Origin: Thermoplasmatota archaeon
GTDB taxonomy: Archaea > Thermoplasmatota > Thermoplasmata > Thermoplasmatales > Thermoplasmataceae
Direction: 5' to 3'
NCBI GenBank assembly: GCA_023379355.1
Contig: JAMCUD010000032.1
Span: 1-8,915 of the forward strand
DNA length: 8,915 nucleotides
Below are positions 22 to 8,915 of the stretch, piece by piece. The notes below the pieces were generated by a model, which did not search any database, was not told the origin of the DNA, and worked only from the letters and a program-made list of their open reading frames with translations. Within the stretch, counting starts at the first letter, position 1. Each line of letters starts with the position of its first letter. Position numbers and translations under genes: made by a program.

Positions 22-95
22 GGGTCCGTAGCTTAGTCAGGTAGAGCGATGGACTCTTAATCCATAGGTCGGGGGTTCGAACCCCCTCGGACCCG
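22..95 (+). tRNA. tRNA-Lys (anticodon CTT)
   Basis: A full cloverleaf can be drawn. The 7-bp acceptor stem GGGTCCG (22-28) pairs with CGGACCC (88-94), with discriminator G95. The D stem is GCTT/GAGC. The anticodon stem ATGGA/TCCAT (49-53 and 61-65) encloses the loop CTCTTAA, so the anticodon is CTT and reads Lys codon AAG. The T arm GGGGG-TTCGAAC-CCCCT closes with one G-T pair. No intron is seen and CCA is not encoded. Only 21 bases lie upstream, so its promoter is not visible. It sits at the edge of a defense island, and tRNA genes are common integration sites, but no second copy of its 3' end occurs in the window. Confidence 0.96.
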
Positions 96-100
96 CTCTA

Positions 101-447: not shown

Positions 448-460
448 ACATTTACTTTTG

Positions 461-658
461 ATGGCTACTGATATAGTTACCAGTTTCAGGGTTGACTCTG
501 AGCTGTGGAAGAAGGTTAGGATTTATGCTGTTGAACACGATTTAACAATTAAGGAATTCATAGAAAATTTAATAATACAAGAGCTCTTGAAAAATAGTAC
601 AGATTGTAATACAGTTGAAAGAATGAATTACCATGACAGATATTCCCATGAGCGGTGA
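461..658 (+). CDS. Small ribbon-helix-helix-like protein, possible operon regulator
   Basis: The protein is 65 residues. I chose ATG 461 over TTG 458 because the TATA spacing predicts leaderless initiation there. Residues about 4-10 (DIVTSFRV) suit the DNA-contacting beta strand of the CopG/Arc/MetJ ribbon-helix-helix fold. Residues about 12-26 (SELWKKVRIYAVEHD) and 29-43 (TIKEFIENLIIQELL) suit the two helices, and a polar tail follows. Such proteins act as dimeric DNA-binding repressors or antitoxins. No toxin-like partner is adjacent. The gene overlaps the methyltransferase start, so the two are probably translated from one mRNA. The likeliest role is a controller of the modification operon, analogous to the C proteins of restriction-modification systems. 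The fold call is moderately sure; the regulatory role is inferred. Confidence 0.7.
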   Translation: MATDIVTSFRVDSELWKKVRIYAVEHDLTIKEFIENLIIQELLKNSTDCNTVERMNYHDRYSHER

Positions 659-1607
659 TCTTGACTTGAGTAACAGAAAATTTAAGGTACTCGACCTCTT
701 TAGCGGTATCGGCGGCCTCTCCTATGGTTTCTCGAAAAATGGATTCAACGTAACAGGGGTAGATAAGTCAGAACGGGCAGGTATGGTTTACCAGATTTTT
801 GCATCACCCAATTTTATTCATGCCGATCTTGGTATTGATCTGATCAAAGGATCGTTTGATGTTATTGTTGGCGGACCACCATGTCGCCCATGGTCTTCTG
901 TAAATCTCTCGAAGAGATCTGAGATTCACAGGGACTACCATCTGGTTGAACGATTCATGGAACATGTAGCAACAAACAGACCCAGAATATTCATCATGGA
1001 GAATGTCCCCTCTCTCAAAAGCGATAAAGGATTTGGAATCCAAATGGCAAGAATTGCTAAACTGGGCTATTCGGTCACTTCTGCATACGTCAAATATTCT
1101 GATTATGGCGCATCGACATCGAGGAAAAGACTGATAGCTGTTGGTCTTCTGGACGGAACTGCAGATGCATTTATTCAGGACTTGAAGAAATTCTCAAAGC
1201 CACCAAAACTCCTGAAGGATACAATCAGAGAATTCAGATATAACGATCGTGGTATCCCACAAGATCATGTCTGGCCAAATCTCAGGACAATCAGTAAGTA
1301 CGCGGAAAAGTATGCTACAGGTAAATATGGTTGGAAGATACTTGAATGGGATTCTCCAGCCCCCTCATTTGGGAACGTTATGAAAACTTATATCCTACCA
1401 CCAGACTCTGACCCGCTCAGTCCTGAAACCCGTGTCGTTTCGGTTCTCGAAGTATCCAGAATAATGGGATTTAATCATGGATTCAGCTTCCCAGAAGGTA
1501 TGCATATAGGTGAACGCTATCAGATGCTGGTTGACTCTGTAAGCCCGGTATTTTCAGACATACTTGCTAAACAGACTCTCTCTTACCTGAAACAATACCG
1601 GCTCTGA
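633..1607 (+). CDS. DNA (cytosine-5-)-methyltransferase
   Basis: A 324-residue C5-cytosine methyltransferase of usual length, transferring methyl from S-adenosylmethionine to cytosine C5 in a specific DNA site. Motif I is DLFSGIGG (21-28). D44 and D65 suit motifs II and III. Motif IV GGPPCRPWS (80-88) carries catalytic C84. Motif VI is ENV (123-125) and motif VIII is SRKR (163-166). The target-recognition region spans about 172-265 and includes YGW and SFGNV. Motif IX is near 267-281. Motif X is ERYQMLVDSVSP (294-305), where VDSV replaces the usual GN-A/S-V. The start at 633 overlaps the RHH gene by 26 nt; ATG 648 is an alternative, and neither has a clear SD. The target sequence cannot be read from the protein. 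It is the probable self-marking enzyme for the convergent nuclease operon, and the glycosylase gene follows 7 nt after its stop. Confidence 0.95.
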   Translation: MTDIPMSGDLDLSNRKFKVLDLFSGIGGLSYGFSKNGFNVTGVDKSERAGMVYQIFASPNFIHADLGIDLIKGSFDVIVGGPPCRPWSSVNLSKRSEIHRDYHLVERFMEHVATNRPRIFIMENVPSLKSDKGFGIQMARIAKLGYSVTSAYVKYSDYGASTSRKRLIAVGLLDGTADAFIQDLKKFSKPPKLLKDTIREFRYNDRGIPQDHVWPNLRTISKYAEKYATGKYGWKILEWDSPAPSFGNVMKTYILPPDSDPLSPETRVVSVLEVSRIMGFNHGFSFPEGMHIGERYQMLVDSVSPVFSDILAKQTLSYLKQYRL

Positions 1608-1611
1608 AATT

Positions 1612-1618
1612 GAGGTGA
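1612..1618 (+). promoter_or_regulatory. Strong SD overlapping the annotated GTG start
   Basis: GAGGTGA (1612-1618) is a seven-base match to the archaeal anti-SD (CACCTCC region). It overlaps GTG 1615, the first standard start codon of the glycosylase frame. At a normal spacing of 5 nt the SD instead points to ATT at 1624-1626, in the same frame. Either the GTG is read despite the overlap, or the protein starts at a rare ATT codon three residues later. Confidence 0.55.
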
Positions 1619-2277
1619 GTTACATTTCTGATTTTGGGAATCAACTGATCGAGTGGTGGAAAAGAGAAGGACGTAGATTCCCTTGGAGGAACACAAATGA
1701 TCCATTTCGAATTTTTTTGGCGGAAGTTCTGCTGCATCGGACAAGAGCTGATAATGTGGTTCCAGTATATCAGAACCTTATAGAAAACTTCCCATCTCTT
1801 GACAGTATCGCAGGAATTGAGGAGAAGAAGCTAAGGAGCATTCTTTCACCATTGGGACTCAAATGGAGGATTGATACGCTGCTTGTTTCGCTAAGAGAGA
1901 TAGTCAGCAATTTTGATGGGAGAATTCCGATGAGCAGGGATCAGCTAATGTCCCTTCCAGGAATCGGTGACTATATCGCATCAGCTACAAGGGTCTTCAC
2001 GTTAAATTCAGATGATCCCCTTATAGATACCAATACTGTGAGAGTCATATCCAGAGTCTATGGGTTGAAAGTTACAGATTCCACTAGAAGAAAAAAGGCA
2101 ATAAGATACAAATATTCGACCCTACGTAATAACTCAGACCCAAGAGCTTTCGGTTTCTCTATGATAGATCTCGCATCATTAATATGCAAGAGTCATGTAC
2201 CGGATTGCAGACACTGCCCGGTATTAAATTTCTGCTCGACAGGACGTACCAGTTTGAACTTTACTCCTCATCAATAA
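1615..2277 (+). CDS. Mig-type T:G mismatch DNA glycosylase (HhH-GPD, [4Fe-4S])
   Basis: A 220-residue HhH-GPD glycosylase, almost exactly the length of Mig.Mth (about 221 residues, archaeal plasmid pFV1). That enzyme removes T from T:G pairs made by 5mC deamination. WWKREGRRFPWRNTNDP (14-30) and EVLLHRTRADNV (37-48) resemble Mig; MutY and EndoIII have a Q-T in the latter place. The helix-hairpin-helix is LPGIGDYIASA (114-124). Tyr120 sits where EndoIII has its lysine, and Asp138 (IDTNTVRV) lies 18 residues on, as Tyr126 and Asp144 do in Mig.Mth. C191-X6-C198-X2-C201-X5-C207 is the cluster loop. The gene lies 7 nt after the methyltransferase stop, supporting repair of methylation-induced mutation. 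It could be a MutY-like A:G enzyme, but its short length without a C-terminal NUDIX-like domain and its linkage argue for Mig. The start (GTG 1615 or ATT 1624) is uncertain. Confidence 0.88.
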   Translation: MSYISDFGNQLIEWWKREGRRFPWRNTNDPFRIFLAEVLLHRTRADNVVPVYQNLIENFPSLDSIAGIEEKKLRSILSPLGLKWRIDTLLVSLREIVSNFDGRIPMSRDQLMSLPGIGDYIASATRVFTLNSDDPLIDTNTVRVISRVYGLKVTDSTRRKKAIRYKYSTLRNNSDPRAFGFSMIDLASLICKSHVPDCRHCPVLNFCSTGRTSLNFTPHQ

Positions 2278-2369
2278 GCATGAAATATCAGAAATTTCTA
2301 CGCGAACGCAGTAAAATCCTATCTGTATAAATTGTTTAATGTTCGAAGCTGAATCCTTTAGAAAGTGAT

Positions 2370-3386
2370 CTATATCTTCAGGTCGAAGTTTTCTGGTCTC
2401 CTTGCGACAATGCAACTCTCGAATCCATCTAGATTTATCTGATACTTCACTCGCTCGACTCCAGTAGGATGTCCATTTAACAGAGTCTTATTTGTGATTT
2501 TGGGAAAATTCGCATCGACGTTGTAAAGCATCTCGTCTACGACTCTAAACTTTAACTTCTCATATTCTGAATCGTGTGCTGGTGAGTATCCTACTGAAGA
2601 CAGTGCACTTTCAAACTGGTCAAGAACCTCTAAATCCTCATTCAGAAGCTCACCAAACGATCTCACCATCTCTGGGAGATCTCTCACTCCTCCATTCTCT
2701 TCTCGCAACTTTAGACTAAAAAATAAAAGTTCCCCATCTTCTGGAGGAAGAAGCTGATCAAGACCGTGAATCCAGTGTATCCTTCCTTCAACGATGGTGG
2801 TTCCCTTGACTTCAAATGAGATATTGGGAAATTCGAAATCATGTCTTCCACCTCGTGGGCCACTCCAGCTTTCAATCACCTTCCGTTTATCAAGACGCGG
2901 GAAAAGCCAGTATTTCATAAACCATAACTCTGAAAAAAGTCCTATTGTCTGTTCTTTAGACAGTATATTCTTAGGGATTTTACCCCAGAAATATCTCCAT
3001 CTGGTCAGGACATTTCTGACAGCCTCAGCCTTGGTCGAAACATCAGCCGATACAGCCTCAGTAATCTGTCGACCTATCAGGTTAAATTGGTCAAACCCAG
3101 TTCTATCAACACACATTATATCAATATACCTTGAAATTATTCCGTTTTGGCTTGTGCCTTTTGTCCTCATATAATTGGTGTTTACATTAATACCTCGGCT
3201 CTCATTATCGCTTATCTCATCTTCTGAGGCAAGAATAGGTATAAGAAAGTGTCTGTGTCCAGAAGAGTCTATTGCGGCCAATACAACTTCAGAAATATTT
3301 GGGAATGCAGGTCTGGCTGTGATCTCAGAGCCTGAGGGAGTATCTCTTGAAAGTTTCAACCAGACTTCTTCCTCAGGTATCGTCAT
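2370..3386 (-). CDS. DUF4420 PD-(D/E)XK family nuclease of an Mza/MORC-type system
   Basis: I start this 338-residue protein at ATG 3386, preceded by GGAG with 8-nt spacing. A TTG at 3434 in the same frame would add 16 unlikely residues and a longer overlap with the Z1 gene. The N-terminal EEEVWLKL (5-12) and the mid-region QTIGLFSELWFMKYW (146-160, conserved-type E153) are typical of DUF4420. The nuclease core is SWSGPRGGRHDFEF followed by SFEVKGT: D183, E192 and K194 form the D...ExK metal-binding site. The family is predicted, largely from context, to cut DNA in systems with Z1 and GHKL ATPases. It is the last gene of the leftward operon, overlapping the Z1 stop by 14 nt, so translation is probably coupled. 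All predicted catalytic residues are present. The DNA-cutting role is inferred from the motif. Confidence 0.88.
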   Translation of the reverse strand: MTIPEEEVWLKLSRDTPSGSEITARPAFPNISEVVLAAIDSSGHRHFLIPILASEDEISDNESRGINVNTNYMRTKGTSQNGIISRYIDIMCVDRTGFDQFNLIGRQITEAVSADVSTKAEAVRNVLTRWRYFWGKIPKNILSKEQTIGLFSELWFMKYWLFPRLDKRKVIESWSGPRGGRHDFEFPNISFEVKGTTIVEGRIHWIHGLDQLLPPEDGELLFFSLKLREENGGVRDLPEMVRSFGELLNEDLEVLDQFESALSSVGYSPAHDSEYEKLKFRVVDEMLYNVDANFPKITNKTLLNGHPTGVERVKYQINLDGFESCIVARRPENFDLKI

Positions 3387-6021
3387 AATATGGTCTCCAT
3401 CCAGCTGTACCGGTCTTGTATGCCTGAACACCAAGTTCGAAATTTGAGCGGGGGAAAGATATTGCTAGAGCCACCAAGTCACGCTTGAATTGTTCTTCGA
3501 TACCGTCGTAAAGTGGTACCCTTCTCTTAGCTGTTTTTGTTTTTGGTGAAGAGTTTCTGCTGATGGGATAAATCAGCATCAGACCTCTTTGGGGGGAACG
3601 TGATATTCTGGCCGCAACATTTTCTGCCAGATCTGGGTCTGTCTGTCGCAGTTCTTCGAATTTTTCCATTTCCTCGGCTGTAAGGCCCAGTTTTTCATCT
3701 CCCGGTGAGGTAATGACTCCGAGAGAATTTGTATCCCTCAATCTTGTACGTGAAATCTGATGAATTTTATTTCCACCAACGCTCCAAGCGGTATCTCCAA
3801 GATCGGGATCTTTCTGGGCAAGTCCCATAAATCCAACAGTCCATTCTACCAGTTCGTCACTGTTTATTCTTCCAGTGATATAAGCGCTTATGAGAGAGAG
3901 TGAGCAGCCAGTCTTCTCTGGAAATTCACTCTGATGAAAACTGCGGAGAAAGTTAGCAATGCTTTCACCTTTTACATTGTACCACACCGGGTTATTATCT
4001 ATCCATTCAGGGTTGCCCAAAGTGGACAGAAAACTCAATAGATGCCTTTCGTTCTCGTCCACCATATTCGCAAGTTCATCTGGTTGATCAAATGGATACT
4101 TGAATGTCTGTTCTATCTGTCCACTGTAGCTCTGTTGAAGGATTATATCCCTAGCATGACGGCGTTTAAGCGGACTGGTTACCTGCATTGAAGGATGCTG
4201 CCAGATTCTCATGCCCAGCTCATACGGGGTTGCCTGAAGGTCTTCGTACACTCTGATATCTTCACGAAGTCTATTTTCAACATATGCCAGATCCGCAAAC
4301 CATGCTGAGAGCACTTTAGTTGTCCAGATTCTCGTCAGATCCAGATAATCACTTCTAAACCCAAACCACCTTCCCATCTGCATCAGGGTATCATACATAT
4401 TGGTCTCTCTGACGAAATAACTGACAGTGAGACCTTCAAGAGTAAGCCCCCTTGAGAGTCTGTTTCCCCCTATTATTATAGCTTTCAGTTCTGGCTCTCT
4501 CTCATAATCGATGATTTCTCCAGTCCAGCTGTTCACAGTTCTTATCTGTACAGACTCAAAAAAGGGCGTAATGAATTTTTCTATCTGAGAAAAGTCAACA
4601 ACCTTAAGTGGGTAAATTGCACTCACTGTGTTTTTGAAATCAGTTTCCCACATGTCGTTAAGAGTTTTTCTTATACCACTTCCTCTATCATATCTCCACT
4701 GATTTCTGAACTCATTGAATCTGTCTCTGACAATTTGGGTAACAGTATCGTGCGATGCTGTCAGACGACTTGTATGAATTAACATCGTACAGGGTTTCAA
4801 AGCATCGCCTCTCTGTGCTCTGGCAGCTCCTGTGAGAACAAAATTTAACAATGCCTGGTCTAAAGAATTTGGAATTGTGCCATTTTCGAGCAAGGTTGAA
4901 TCTTCATCAGGGACCGTTCTAATTACATCAAGCCCAGGATCATATTCACCTGTTGAAGAATTGTTCCTTCCAAATAAATCTTCAGCTCCAATGTATCCAT
5001 CAGGCTTGGGTAAATCGACAATGAAATCTTTTGGATACAGATCATTATGAACCTTTGGATCAAAGGTATCATGAGGTATCAGAATGTTCGCAAAAGGCGT
5101 AGCAGTGTATGCAACGTAAGCTTTTTTCCTGAAACGGTTCAGGAGTTCTCTAACTAATTTGTTCATCACTGACGGTTCAGTATAGTCTGGCGGTAATTCT
5201 TCATCAGGTGTCTGATATGAACCTCTGGTGTCTATGGAAGCAAGATCAGCTTCGTCGTCGATTACCAGTGTGGGAATTTCTCGCATTATATCAGGAGGGG
5301 CGGAATCTAACCAATTAAACAACCTTCTCAGAACTGGGCCATTTTTCTTGACAACCATGATGACTGGTTCGGGCCCTTGCAGTACAGCCTGATTGAAAGT
5401 GCCTGACTGAAAATCCCCATCTACCTCATCTGAGGTCAATCTGTGCCACTGTTTTCCCTGAGGAGGAAATGGAACTCTAGGAGTATTCCCTCGTTCATCT
5501 CCCAATCCAACCAGTTCCCTGTCTATTCGCATTTGTGTCTGCCGCCGGAGACCTTTATCTATGCCAGATAGAACAATGAACAACCTATAGCCAGCATCCG
5601 CAGCTTTGGCAATCAAGGCGGTGAAATTAGTCGTCTTTCCACTCTGAATGAATCCTAGAACAAGTCCTCTGACATCAAACTCACCCGAATTCGGCTGCCC
5701 CAACTGTCTTAGAATTTTATCAGTGACGTCATCAACCGATCGGATAGATGGAATTGAGCGGCCTTTGAGGGAGAAGAGTTCTCTGAGTCTGGGCCAGTAA
5801 TACCATCCAGCCCTGTCAATATTCTGTAACCAGTCCGAACTAGCCCCTGCAGTTACAAAATGAGCAGGTTCAAGTGTTATATTTTGTTCCAACTCGATTT
5901 TAGAACGTATCCATTCTCTATCTTCCGCTTGAATCTCTGGATTATTTACAGCATCCACTAACTTTGTCCCGGAATCTAAAAGAAATCTGACCAGCGCAAG
6001 TCCTCTGTCTCTGGTAAGCAT
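3373..6021 (-). CDS. Z1-domain superfamily II helicase-like ATPase
   Basis: Starting at ATG 6021 gives 882 residues. A TTG at 6072 would extend it by 17, but the ATG has a strong SD (GGGAGGAGAGGT). The Walker A is GFIQSGKT (123-130, K129). The Walker B is LVIDDEAD (252-259), DEAD-box-like. A motif III-like YTATPFAN lies at 305-312. The Z1 signature is GGNRLSRGLTLEGL (518-531) followed by MQMGRWFGFRSDYLDLTRIW (547-566), including the arginine-rich motif VI equivalent. These residues make it a probable active NTP-driven DNA or nucleic-acid translocase. Z1 proteins accompany MutL/MORC-like ATPases and DUF4420 nucleases in predicted restriction and Mza defense systems, and all three are together here. 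It is the second gene of the leftward operon, 68 nt after the GHKL stop. Its substrate and cleavage mode are not known from sequence. It appears full-length. Confidence 0.93.
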   Translation of the reverse strand: MLTRDRGLALVRFLLDSGTKLVDAVNNPEIQAEDREWIRSKIELEQNITLEPAHFVTAGASSDWLQNIDRAGWYYWPRLRELFSLKGRSIPSIRSVDDVTDKILRQLGQPNSGEFDVRGLVLGFIQSGKTTNFTALIAKAADAGYRLFIVLSGIDKGLRRQTQMRIDRELVGLGDERGNTPRVPFPPQGKQWHRLTSDEVDGDFQSGTFNQAVLQGPEPVIMVVKKNGPVLRRLFNWLDSAPPDIMREIPTLVIDDEADLASIDTRGSYQTPDEELPPDYTEPSVMNKLVRELLNRFRKKAYVAYTATPFANILIPHDTFDPKVHNDLYPKDFIVDLPKPDGYIGAEDLFGRNNSSTGEYDPGLDVIRTVPDEDSTLLENGTIPNSLDQALLNFVLTGAARAQRGDALKPCTMLIHTSRLTASHDTVTQIVRDRFNEFRNQWRYDRGSGIRKTLNDMWETDFKNTVSAIYPLKVVDFSQIEKFITPFFESVQIRTVNSWTGEIIDYEREPELKAIIIGGNRLSRGLTLEGLTVSYFVRETNMYDTLMQMGRWFGFRSDYLDLTRIWTTKVLSAWFADLAYVENRLREDIRVYEDLQATPYELGMRIWQHPSMQVTSPLKRRHARDIILQQSYSGQIEQTFKYPFDQPDELANMVDENERHLLSFLSTLGNPEWIDNNPVWYNVKGESIANFLRSFHQSEFPEKTGCSLSLISAYITGRINSDELVEWTVGFMGLAQKDPDLGDTAWSVGGNKIHQISRTRLRDTNSLGVITSPGDEKLGLTAEEMEKFEELRQTDPDLAENVAARISRSPQRGLMLIYPISRNSSPKTKTAKRRVPLYDGIEEQFKRDLVALAISFPRSNFELGVQAYKTGTAGWRPYYDDT

Positions 6022-6025
6022 AACA

Positions 6026-6037
6026 ACCTCTCCTCCC
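6026..6037 (-). promoter_or_regulatory. SD of the Z1 gene
   Basis: Read leftward, GGGAGGAGAGGT ends four bases before ATG 6021. It offers both GGAGG and GAGGT matches to the anti-SD. It decides the start of the Z1 protein against the upstream TTG at 6072, which has no SD. Confidence 0.7.
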
Positions 6038-6089
6038 AACCTTTTTGAGGCTTTACAACGATTTGCGTGCAATCCTTAATTTTCAACAT

Positions 6090-7562
6090 CTACCATCCAA
6101 GGGAATTTGCGGCTTCAGGATCATCCTGCTTGAGGGAACTTCTGATCCTTTGCAGTGCCCTGCTTTCTCCAATCTTCTCTGCAGCCAATTCCAACGACCT
6201 TCCAAGGGTATTTCTTTCTCTGGAATTGAAATCACTAGACTGATTAGTAGTGTAATGCTTCACCGAGGTTTGATTACCGTTCAAATTGAATGTGGCTGAA
6301 CTCCGGGTCACATTATCTACCAATATACGTGAGGATGGTACACCAACTTGCTGATTCTGGCCTCCGGGATGATTAGTCTGTGAATTATCTGAAGCACTTA
6401 CCGAGGCTCTGGTATTATTCATTACATGAAGGGTCGGATTATCTTTATTCGTTTTATCTGGTGTGTATTTACTTCTAGCGAGGGAACAGAGTTTTTCAAC
6501 AGTATCTCTAAGGCCATCTTTCATTACAGACGGAAAAACAACACTGCTTTTCATTATATTAAGTCCCAGCGTGAAGTCCGCATCAGCGTGCAGATCTAAA
6601 GCAATTCTGGCATACTTTGTGTGCTCGTCTGGGGCTCTCATCCTGTTCCAACCTCCGCTCTGTATCAACCTGTCTTCCCTATAGATGTAGAACCCCTGCT
6701 GTGCATTCCAGTCATTTGGCCCAGAAGCATTCTTCCATGCTTCAAGAGTAGAGAACTGAGCTTTGGTGGGTAAAAGATAAGCAGTGTAATGAACATAGAA
6801 TGCCCTGTCAGAACCAGGTACAGCAATTGTCTTTTCGTCCAACTTAAGCGTACTTTTCTCAGTTCTCGCAAACGGGTCCCACGGTGAAAGTGGTTCATCT
6901 CCCATTTTTATAACAACTTTCTTATCAGGACCCAACTCTCCAGAAAGAAATCTGTGAAACACCATACTCAAATGTCTTTCCAAGTCACGCGCCATTTTCA
7001 TGAAGCCTTTTTGGGCTCGCATACCATCAGGTGGGTCATAAGCCATCATTCTATCAAGGTTTTCCCAGAGAACGACCGTTCCAGAGTGATGAGAAATTGG
7101 ATCAGATACTACAGGTGAATATTCAGATTTTGGTATTGTCTGTATTTCCCAGCGATCGGTCTCCCGGATATGATCCAGATTGAGCTGTCTTATCTCAATT
7201 TCTGAATCGGATTCGTCTGTTTTACTGGCTACTGTCAGTTTTCGGCACTGTGATATGGATGCGGTTTTAAGACCTAATCCAAATTTTCCAAGTTCTCCCG
7301 GTTCATATGTTCTATTTGTTCCAAATCTCATAGCTTCAGTCAGTGTTTCTGAGTCCATTCCTCTTCCATTATCAGATACTAAAAACCATGACGAATTCCC
7401 ATCAAATTTCATTGTTATATTAATCTCTGAAGCACCCGCTTGTATTGAATTATCAATGATGTCAGCTGCGGCAGTCACGAAATCATATCCCTCATCTCTA
7501 AGTGAAGTTACAAGTCTGCGTGCACCAGGGACGACCTCGATTGAACCCCTCTTTTCTGTCAT
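6090..7562 (-). CDS. GHKL (MutL/MORC-like) ATPase of an Mza-type defense system
   Basis: A 490-residue protein with a Bergerat-fold ATP site at its N-terminus. The N-box region is ADIIDNSIQAGA (33-44, N38). Motif G1 is SDNGRGM (63-69). The ATP lid is GKFGLGLKTAS (92-102), and the G3-like SGTVVLW is at 160-166. A middle domain follows to about residue 370, then a Ser/Asn/Gln-rich linker (about 375-450), then a charged helical tail. The usual N-box catalytic Glu is Asp34 here. Such ATPases act as nucleotide-driven clamps, and MutL/MORC-like members occur with Z1 and DUF4420 genes in restriction/defense operons. It is the first gene of the leftward operon. ATG 7562 has no SD but has a TATA-like box 28 nt upstream, so the mRNA is probably leaderless. 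No MutL endonuclease motif is seen. Confidence 0.9.
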   Translation of the reverse strand: MTEKRGSIEVVPGARRLVTSLRDEGYDFVTAAADIIDNSIQAGASEINITMKFDGNSSWFLVSDNGRGMDSETLTEAMRFGTNRTYEPGELGKFGLGLKTASISQCRKLTVASKTDESDSEIEIRQLNLDHIRETDRWEIQTIPKSEYSPVVSDPISHHSGTVVLWENLDRMMAYDPPDGMRAQKGFMKMARDLERHLSMVFHRFLSGELGPDKKVVIKMGDEPLSPWDPFARTEKSTLKLDEKTIAVPGSDRAFYVHYTAYLLPTKAQFSTLEAWKNASGPNDWNAQQGFYIYREDRLIQSGGWNRMRAPDEHTKYARIALDLHADADFTLGLNIMKSSVVFPSVMKDGLRDTVEKLCSLARSKYTPDKTNKDNPTLHVMNNTRASVSASDNSQTNHPGGQNQQVGVPSSRILVDNVTRSSATFNLNGNQTSVKHYTTNQSSDFNSRERNTLGRSLELAAEKIGESRALQRIRSSLKQDDPEAANSLGW

Positions 7563-7585
7563 TTAACTTTATGAGGTAAGGTTAT

Positions 7586-7594
7586 AATATATTT
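7586..7594 (-). promoter_or_regulatory. TATA-like box of the leftward defense operon
   Basis: Read leftward, AAATATATT is centred 28 nt before ATG 7562, within an AT-only tract of about 15 bases. Together with the lack of an SD at that ATG, it predicts a leaderless transcript for the GHKL-Z1-DUF4420 operon. No symmetric operator is seen at the box itself; the nearest palindromes lie about 240 bp upstream. Confidence 0.5.
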
Positions 7595-7833
7595 ATTAAC
7601 TTTTCCGCTACCGCAAGAATTATGGACTAAATCTGCTGTAAAATTGAACAGTCCCTGCAATATCTGGATCTAAGGTCAACCAATATGGACGATTAGCAAA
7701 CAGGAATAGAAAGTGGTAAAGCAAACGAGCTATTTGTTGCTTATTATGAACCCATAAAACCTTGAAAAAAGAGTAAAAAGCTAACTAAATTAGAGTTTAC
7801 TTTCCATGAAGTTCCCATTCATAATTTATACTT

Positions 7834-7921
7834 GCACAGAATTCTGTGCGCTATCTCAGAGTATCTGATCTCTCACAGACTATGCATAATTCCATTAACG
7901 TTGCATCGTTTTTATGCATAG
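7834..7921. repeat. Cluster of three perfect palindromes
   Basis: Within 88 bp lie GCACAGAATTCTGTGC (7834-7849, a perfect 16-bp palindrome), TCAGA-gta-TCTGA (7856-7868), and CTATGCATA (7880-7888) repeated inverted as TATGCATAG (7913-7921) with 24 bp between the arms. No gene covers them. They lie upstream of the leftward defense operon. Operators, a structured RNA or recombination sites are possible; the sequence does not decide between them. Confidence 0.6.
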
Positions 7922-8263
7922 AATGATCGCCATCACTCCTCATGGTATGATTTTACCTCTTTAGATTTACATCAGCATTAAATCGCTTATTTTCGATTCA
8001 CAGAAAGGCGCTTCTTTTCTCTTTCATTAAAAAGGTAGAACCATACTAACTTCTTTTAGTCTTAAATTATTCCTTGGTATGTTGGCTAAAGTTTCAGCTT
8101 GGCTGGACCATTTCCTAACCCCCAATCCTAAAATAGTTCTATTTGACGGCGTTATATATCAGTTCTGCGGAGGTTTCTGATGGAGTAATAGATAGTTATT
8201 TTACATGTATGGTACGAGGTCTTAGCTTTCATTAAATCATTGGTTGATGTCGAATTTGCCCCA

Positions 8264-8283
8264 CCATTTCACAAATGAAATGG
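8264..8283. repeat. Short perfect stem-loop
   Basis: CCATTTCA (8264-8271) and TGAAATGG (8276-8283) form an 8-bp stem with the 4-nt loop CAAA. No run of T follows closely on either strand, so a terminator role is not obvious. Confidence 0.45.
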
Positions 8284-8392
8284 AAATGCTCCAGATCTTG
8301 GTTTTCCAATAAATCCACTGGCTAAAGAACCCATTCCAGTGTTGCTCACACTCCACATGGGATTTTATCAGCAGTTAACACATTATCTCCTC

Positions 8393-8530: not shown

Positions 8531-8587
8531 AAGATTGTTGCATAACCCATGCAATAATTTTTCTTGAAAATAAGATGGGTGTTGTTT

Positions 8588-8915
8588 GTGCAGAACAACA
8601 ACCCAATTGCTCATGGAAAGGATCATAATAAAAGGATATGGCCCCTCTACAATGAGTCTCTGGTCAGACGCATGAAGAATATCCTTGATCTCAAGGATAT
8701 TGAAAACTACAGGGATGATCTGATGAATCAGAATGCAGGAAAGAATGGAAGGCCTTTCACTCTTCCTGATAAGATCATTGAGATCCTTGCAAGGATCAGA
8801 TCAGTATTCAATGCTTCTTTCAGATCACTGGAATCTTACATTAGAATATTCCAGGAGATTCTCGGAATACCGAGAATCTCATACACATCAATATTCAGAA
8901 GAATAAGGACGTTCA
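8588..8915 (+). CDS. IS5-family transposase, N-terminal part
   Basis: An open frame runs from GTG 8588 off the window end, giving 109 complete codons. WPLYNESLVRRM (about 19-30) and GRPFTLPDKIIEILARIRSV (about 54-73) fit the N-terminal domain of IS903-group IS5 transposases, which read W..YN..LV.R and GRP..YP...IE.L...R. FRSLESYIRIF and SYTSIFRRIR continue the match. The DDE catalytic residues would lie further right and are not in view. The start is uncertain: no good SD exists, and GTG 8579 or TTG 8582 are alternatives. Whether the full gene is intact cannot be told. It acts by cutting and pasting its own element and is not part of the defense module. The coding sequence contains three strong palindromes. 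Confidence 0.8.
   Translation, partial: MQNNNPIAHGKDHNKRIWPLYNESLVRRMKNILDLKDIENYRDDLMNQNAGKNGRPFTLPDKIIEILARIRSVFNASFRSLESYIRIFQEILGIPRISYTSIFRRIRTF
8678..8701. repeat. 24-bp palindrome inside the transposase gene
   Basis: AATATCCTTGA (8678-8688) and TCAAGGATATT (8691-8701) are perfect 11-base inverted arms with only TC between them. In mRNA this would fold into a strong hairpin soon after the transposase start. Confidence 0.75.
8782..8797. repeat. 16-bp perfect palindrome inside the transposase gene
   Basis: GATCCTTGCAAGGATC reads the same on both strands. It shares the ATCCTTG...CAAGGAT core with the palindrome at 8678-8701, so arms of the two could also pair with each other. Confidence 0.75.
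8855..8880. repeat. 11-bp stem, 4-nt loop hairpin inside the transposase gene
   Basis: GAGATTCTCGG (8855-8865) and CCGAGAATCTC (8870-8880) pair perfectly around the loop AATA. It encodes the segment EILGIPRIS of the transposase and has no T-run after it within view. Confidence 0.8.

What the first reader, a model, noticed from the sequence alone, without database searches (positions are those of the whole stretch)
633..7562. Archaeal Mza/MORC-type restriction island pairing a 5mC methyltransferase and a Mig glycosylase with a GHKL-Z1-DUF4420 module
Seen: two convergent operons, RHH-methyltransferase-Mig and GHKL ATPase-Z1-DUF4420, with all key motifs intact. Known: GHKL (MutL/MORC-like), Z1 and DUF4420 proteins were predicted to form restriction systems, often with a cytosine methyltransferase and Vsr, and an Mza type (MutL, Z1, DUF, AIPR) has shown anti-phage activity. 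Inference: this is a modification-dependent self/non-self system in which the three-gene module attacks unmethylated DNA. The combination with Mig in one locus is, as far as I know, not a described subtype.
Basis: partly seen in the sequence, partly recalled or inferred. Interest (0 to 1): 0.8.

Follow-up and report, generated by a model that had tools for sequence, protein, structure and literature searches.

The report
Archaeal MORC restriction system with Mig
An archaeal DNA island pairs a predicted self/non-self DNA-cutting system with a methylating enzyme and a repair enzyme (Mig) that appears to take the place of the usual repair partner, Vsr, a replacement that seems to have happened several times in related systems.

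The parts
458..658 (+). ribbon-helix-helix-like small protein (likely start ATG 461), candidate regulator of the MTase-Mig operon
   Evidence: all matches below curated cut-offs; overlaps the MTase start
633..1607 (+). C5-cytosine DNA methyltransferase (alternative ATG at 648); strongly conserved presumed target-recognition region
   Evidence: (PADLOC DrmMII 1.4e-90)
1615..2277 (+). Mig-type HhH-GPD DNA glycosylase, 220 aa, no C-terminal 8-oxoG domain; GTG start 7 bases after the MTase stop
   Evidence: (PADLOC name: Type II nicking endonuclease, 2.3e-30)
2370..3434 (-). DUF4420 nuclease, PD-(D/E)XK restriction-endonuclease fold (likely start ATG 3386)
   Evidence: (E-D-ExK invariant in 90 of 90)
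3373..6072 (-). [not shown]
6090..7562 (-). GHKL ATPase of the prokaryotic MORC family (motif GFYIYREDRLI)
22..96 (+). tRNA-Lys (CTT) at the left end of the window; relation to the island not shown
8564..8915 (+). 5' part of an IS5-type transposase, cut by the window end (matches below curated cut-offs)

Best explanation
[not shown]
Confidence: 0.72

Rival explanations
1. [not shown]
Confidence: 0.18
2. A modification-dependent (type IV-like) system: the module attacks DNA that carries foreign modification, and the MTase-Mig pair is unrelated housekeeping.
For: The nearest fold match of DUF4420 is DpnI, a methyl-directed enzyme (recalled); fold only.
Against: A cytosine MTase in the same locus in 83 of 92 cases would threaten the host unless the attack spares 5mC.
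Confidence: 0.05
3. The glycosylase is an ordinary MutY that happens to lie here.
For: By sequence the eleven best PDB hits are MutY-type adenine glycosylases, 1kea (Mig) being twelfth; NCBIfam mutY is the top name.
Against: mutY score 156 against a cut-off of 286.5; only 220 aa, without the MutY C-terminal domain; R47 and A50 of the Mig type where the MutY compared has Q and V; an MTase in the stretch in 12 of 12 and 20 of 21 Mig loci surveyed.
Confidence: 0.03

Closest known systems
Prokaryotic MORC operons, third type (Iyer, Abhiman, Aravind 2008, PMC2292703)
   Different: Mig glycosylase where that paper reports Vsr; the paper's held main text has no 'glycosylase' or 'MutY'
MZA anti-phage system (NCBIfam/PADLOC MzaA-E; Gao et al. 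2020, not held, recalled)
   Same: homologous MzaB, MzaC, MzaD
   Different: scores 243/850, 449/1500, 99/420 of the curated cut-offs; no MzaE (AIPR) in the window; no MzaA hit among the seven ORFs scanned
Mig.MthI (PDB 1kea); its place beside plasmid-borne R-M genes is recalled
   Same: short HhH-GPD glycosylase with Fe-S cluster motif and F27/E42/R47/A50/Y126/D144/D191; companion of a C5-MTase
Dcm-Vsr very-short-patch repair
   Same: repair partner of a C5-MTase against 5mC deamination
   Different: unrelated fold and chemistry: glycosylase instead of a mismatch nicking endonuclease

Membership tests
MORC type-3 R-M operon (Iyer 2008) | GHKL protein with MORC motif GhXhhpXXRhl in the S5 domain | tested here: met
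   GFYIYREDRLI; 87 of 92 GHKL proteins, 9 of 839 other ORFs
MORC type-3 R-M operon (Iyer 2008) | SFII helicase with DThhQXuRhFG motif | tested here: met
   DTLMQMGRWFG
MORC type-3 R-M operon (Iyer 2008) | separate nuclease with E-D-ExK | tested here: met
   E, D, ExK invariant in 90 of 90; restriction-endonuclease rows in the second look
MORC type-3 R-M operon (Iyer 2008) | DNA methylase (frequent, accessory) | tested here: met
   PF00145
MORC type-3 R-M operon (Iyer 2008) | Vsr (frequent, accessory, not defining) | tested here: not met
   no Vsr in the window (row WIN); Mig instead
MZA (NCBIfam) | MzaB, MzaC, MzaD above curated equivalog cut-offs | tested here: not met
   243/850, 449/1500, 99/420 bits
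MZA (NCBIfam) | MzaE (AIPR) in the operon | tested here: not met
   none in the window (row WIN); DUF4420 is followed by the convergent Mig gene; sequence beyond the window not seen
MZA (NCBIfam) | MzaA | tested here: inconclusive
   no hit among the seven ORFs scanned; no unscanned ORF is longer than 128 aa; sequence beyond the window not seen
Mig T/G glycosylase | pocket residues F27, E42, R47, A50, Y126, D144 of Mig.MthI | tested here: met
   all six identical, as is D191
Mig T/G glycosylase | L187 (Q182 in E. coli MutY) | tested here: inconclusive
   F in the window; F/Y/L in 117 of 119 relatives; effect on specificity unknown
Mig T/G glycosylase | excises T from T:G | not testable with these tools
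   needs assay
R-M system | restricts DNA lacking the MTase mark | not testable with these tools
   needs assay

The most novel reading that the evidence does not exclude
The MORC ATPase, a MutL relative, does double duty: besides driving restriction it loads or stimulates the resident mismatch enzyme (Mig or Vsr) at deaminated methyl sites, as MutL affects Vsr. The system would then police both foreign DNA and the decay of its own epigenetic mark, and Mig and Vsr would be swappable clients of one ATPase. The occurrence of either enzyme next to AIPR, over 7 kb from the MTase, is compatible with this but does not show it.
Probability: 0.12. Interest if true: 0.75.

Novelty: new variant of a known kind. 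Interest (0 to 1): 0.5.

Full report

What the + operon is. The MTase has the C5 motifs and a presumed target-recognition stretch that is strongly conserved among 20 sequences, so they may share a target. Its best PADLOC name is DrmMII, a DISARM methyltransferase by name, which suggests that this MTase type serves different restriction modules. The glycosylase is 220 aa and lacks the MutY C-terminal domain. At eight compared positions it equals Mig.MthI at seven (F27, E42, R47, A50, Y126, D144, D191), with F at 187 where Mig.MthI has L and E. coli MutY has Q (roles of the residues from the abstract and passages of PMC2714593). [quoted passage not shown] PADLOC names the glycosylase 'Type II nicking endonuclease' (2.3e-30), NCBIfam mutY below its cut-off.

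Interpretation. The steady partnership with a C5-MTase and the exclusive exchange with Vsr are what one expects if Mig repairs the T:G mismatches that the system's own mark creates. That the module cuts unmarked DNA is inferred from the family and the MTase linkage. Rivals: two independent neighbours (0.18), a methyl-directed system (0.05), plain MutY (0.03).

Noticed in passing
L018, L025, L035, L045, L047, L055, L060, L061: C5-MTases of 662-716 aa with a C-terminal HhH-GPD/Mig-like domain that in 8 of 8 has lost the catalytic Asp (D144 column) and the HhH glycine pattern but keeps most Fe-S cysteines; 7 of 8 loci also have Vsr. Pfam sees only the MTase in the two scanned. It looks like a dead glycosylase kept as a DNA-binding or structural part.
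   Followed up: partly
[not shown]
   Followed up: partly
[not shown]
   Followed up: no
Mig of L023, L034, L118, L119, L122, L125: The second Fe-S cysteine column reads His in these six archaeal Migs; could be a real ligand change or an alignment slip.
   Followed up: no
G059 (L119), G080, G116: TAG reported inside three archaeal Mig/MutY-type matches; could be pyrrolysine-decoding hosts or decay.
   Followed up: no
window 7563-8390: About 830 bases without a convincing gene between GHKL and the IS5-type transposase; no Rfam match.
   Followed up: partly
window 7576-7605 and 428-450: A/T-rich TATA-like stretches a few tens of bases upstream of the GHKL ATG and the RHH ATG, compatible with leaderless archaeal transcripts (sequence; judged by eye).
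   Followed up: no
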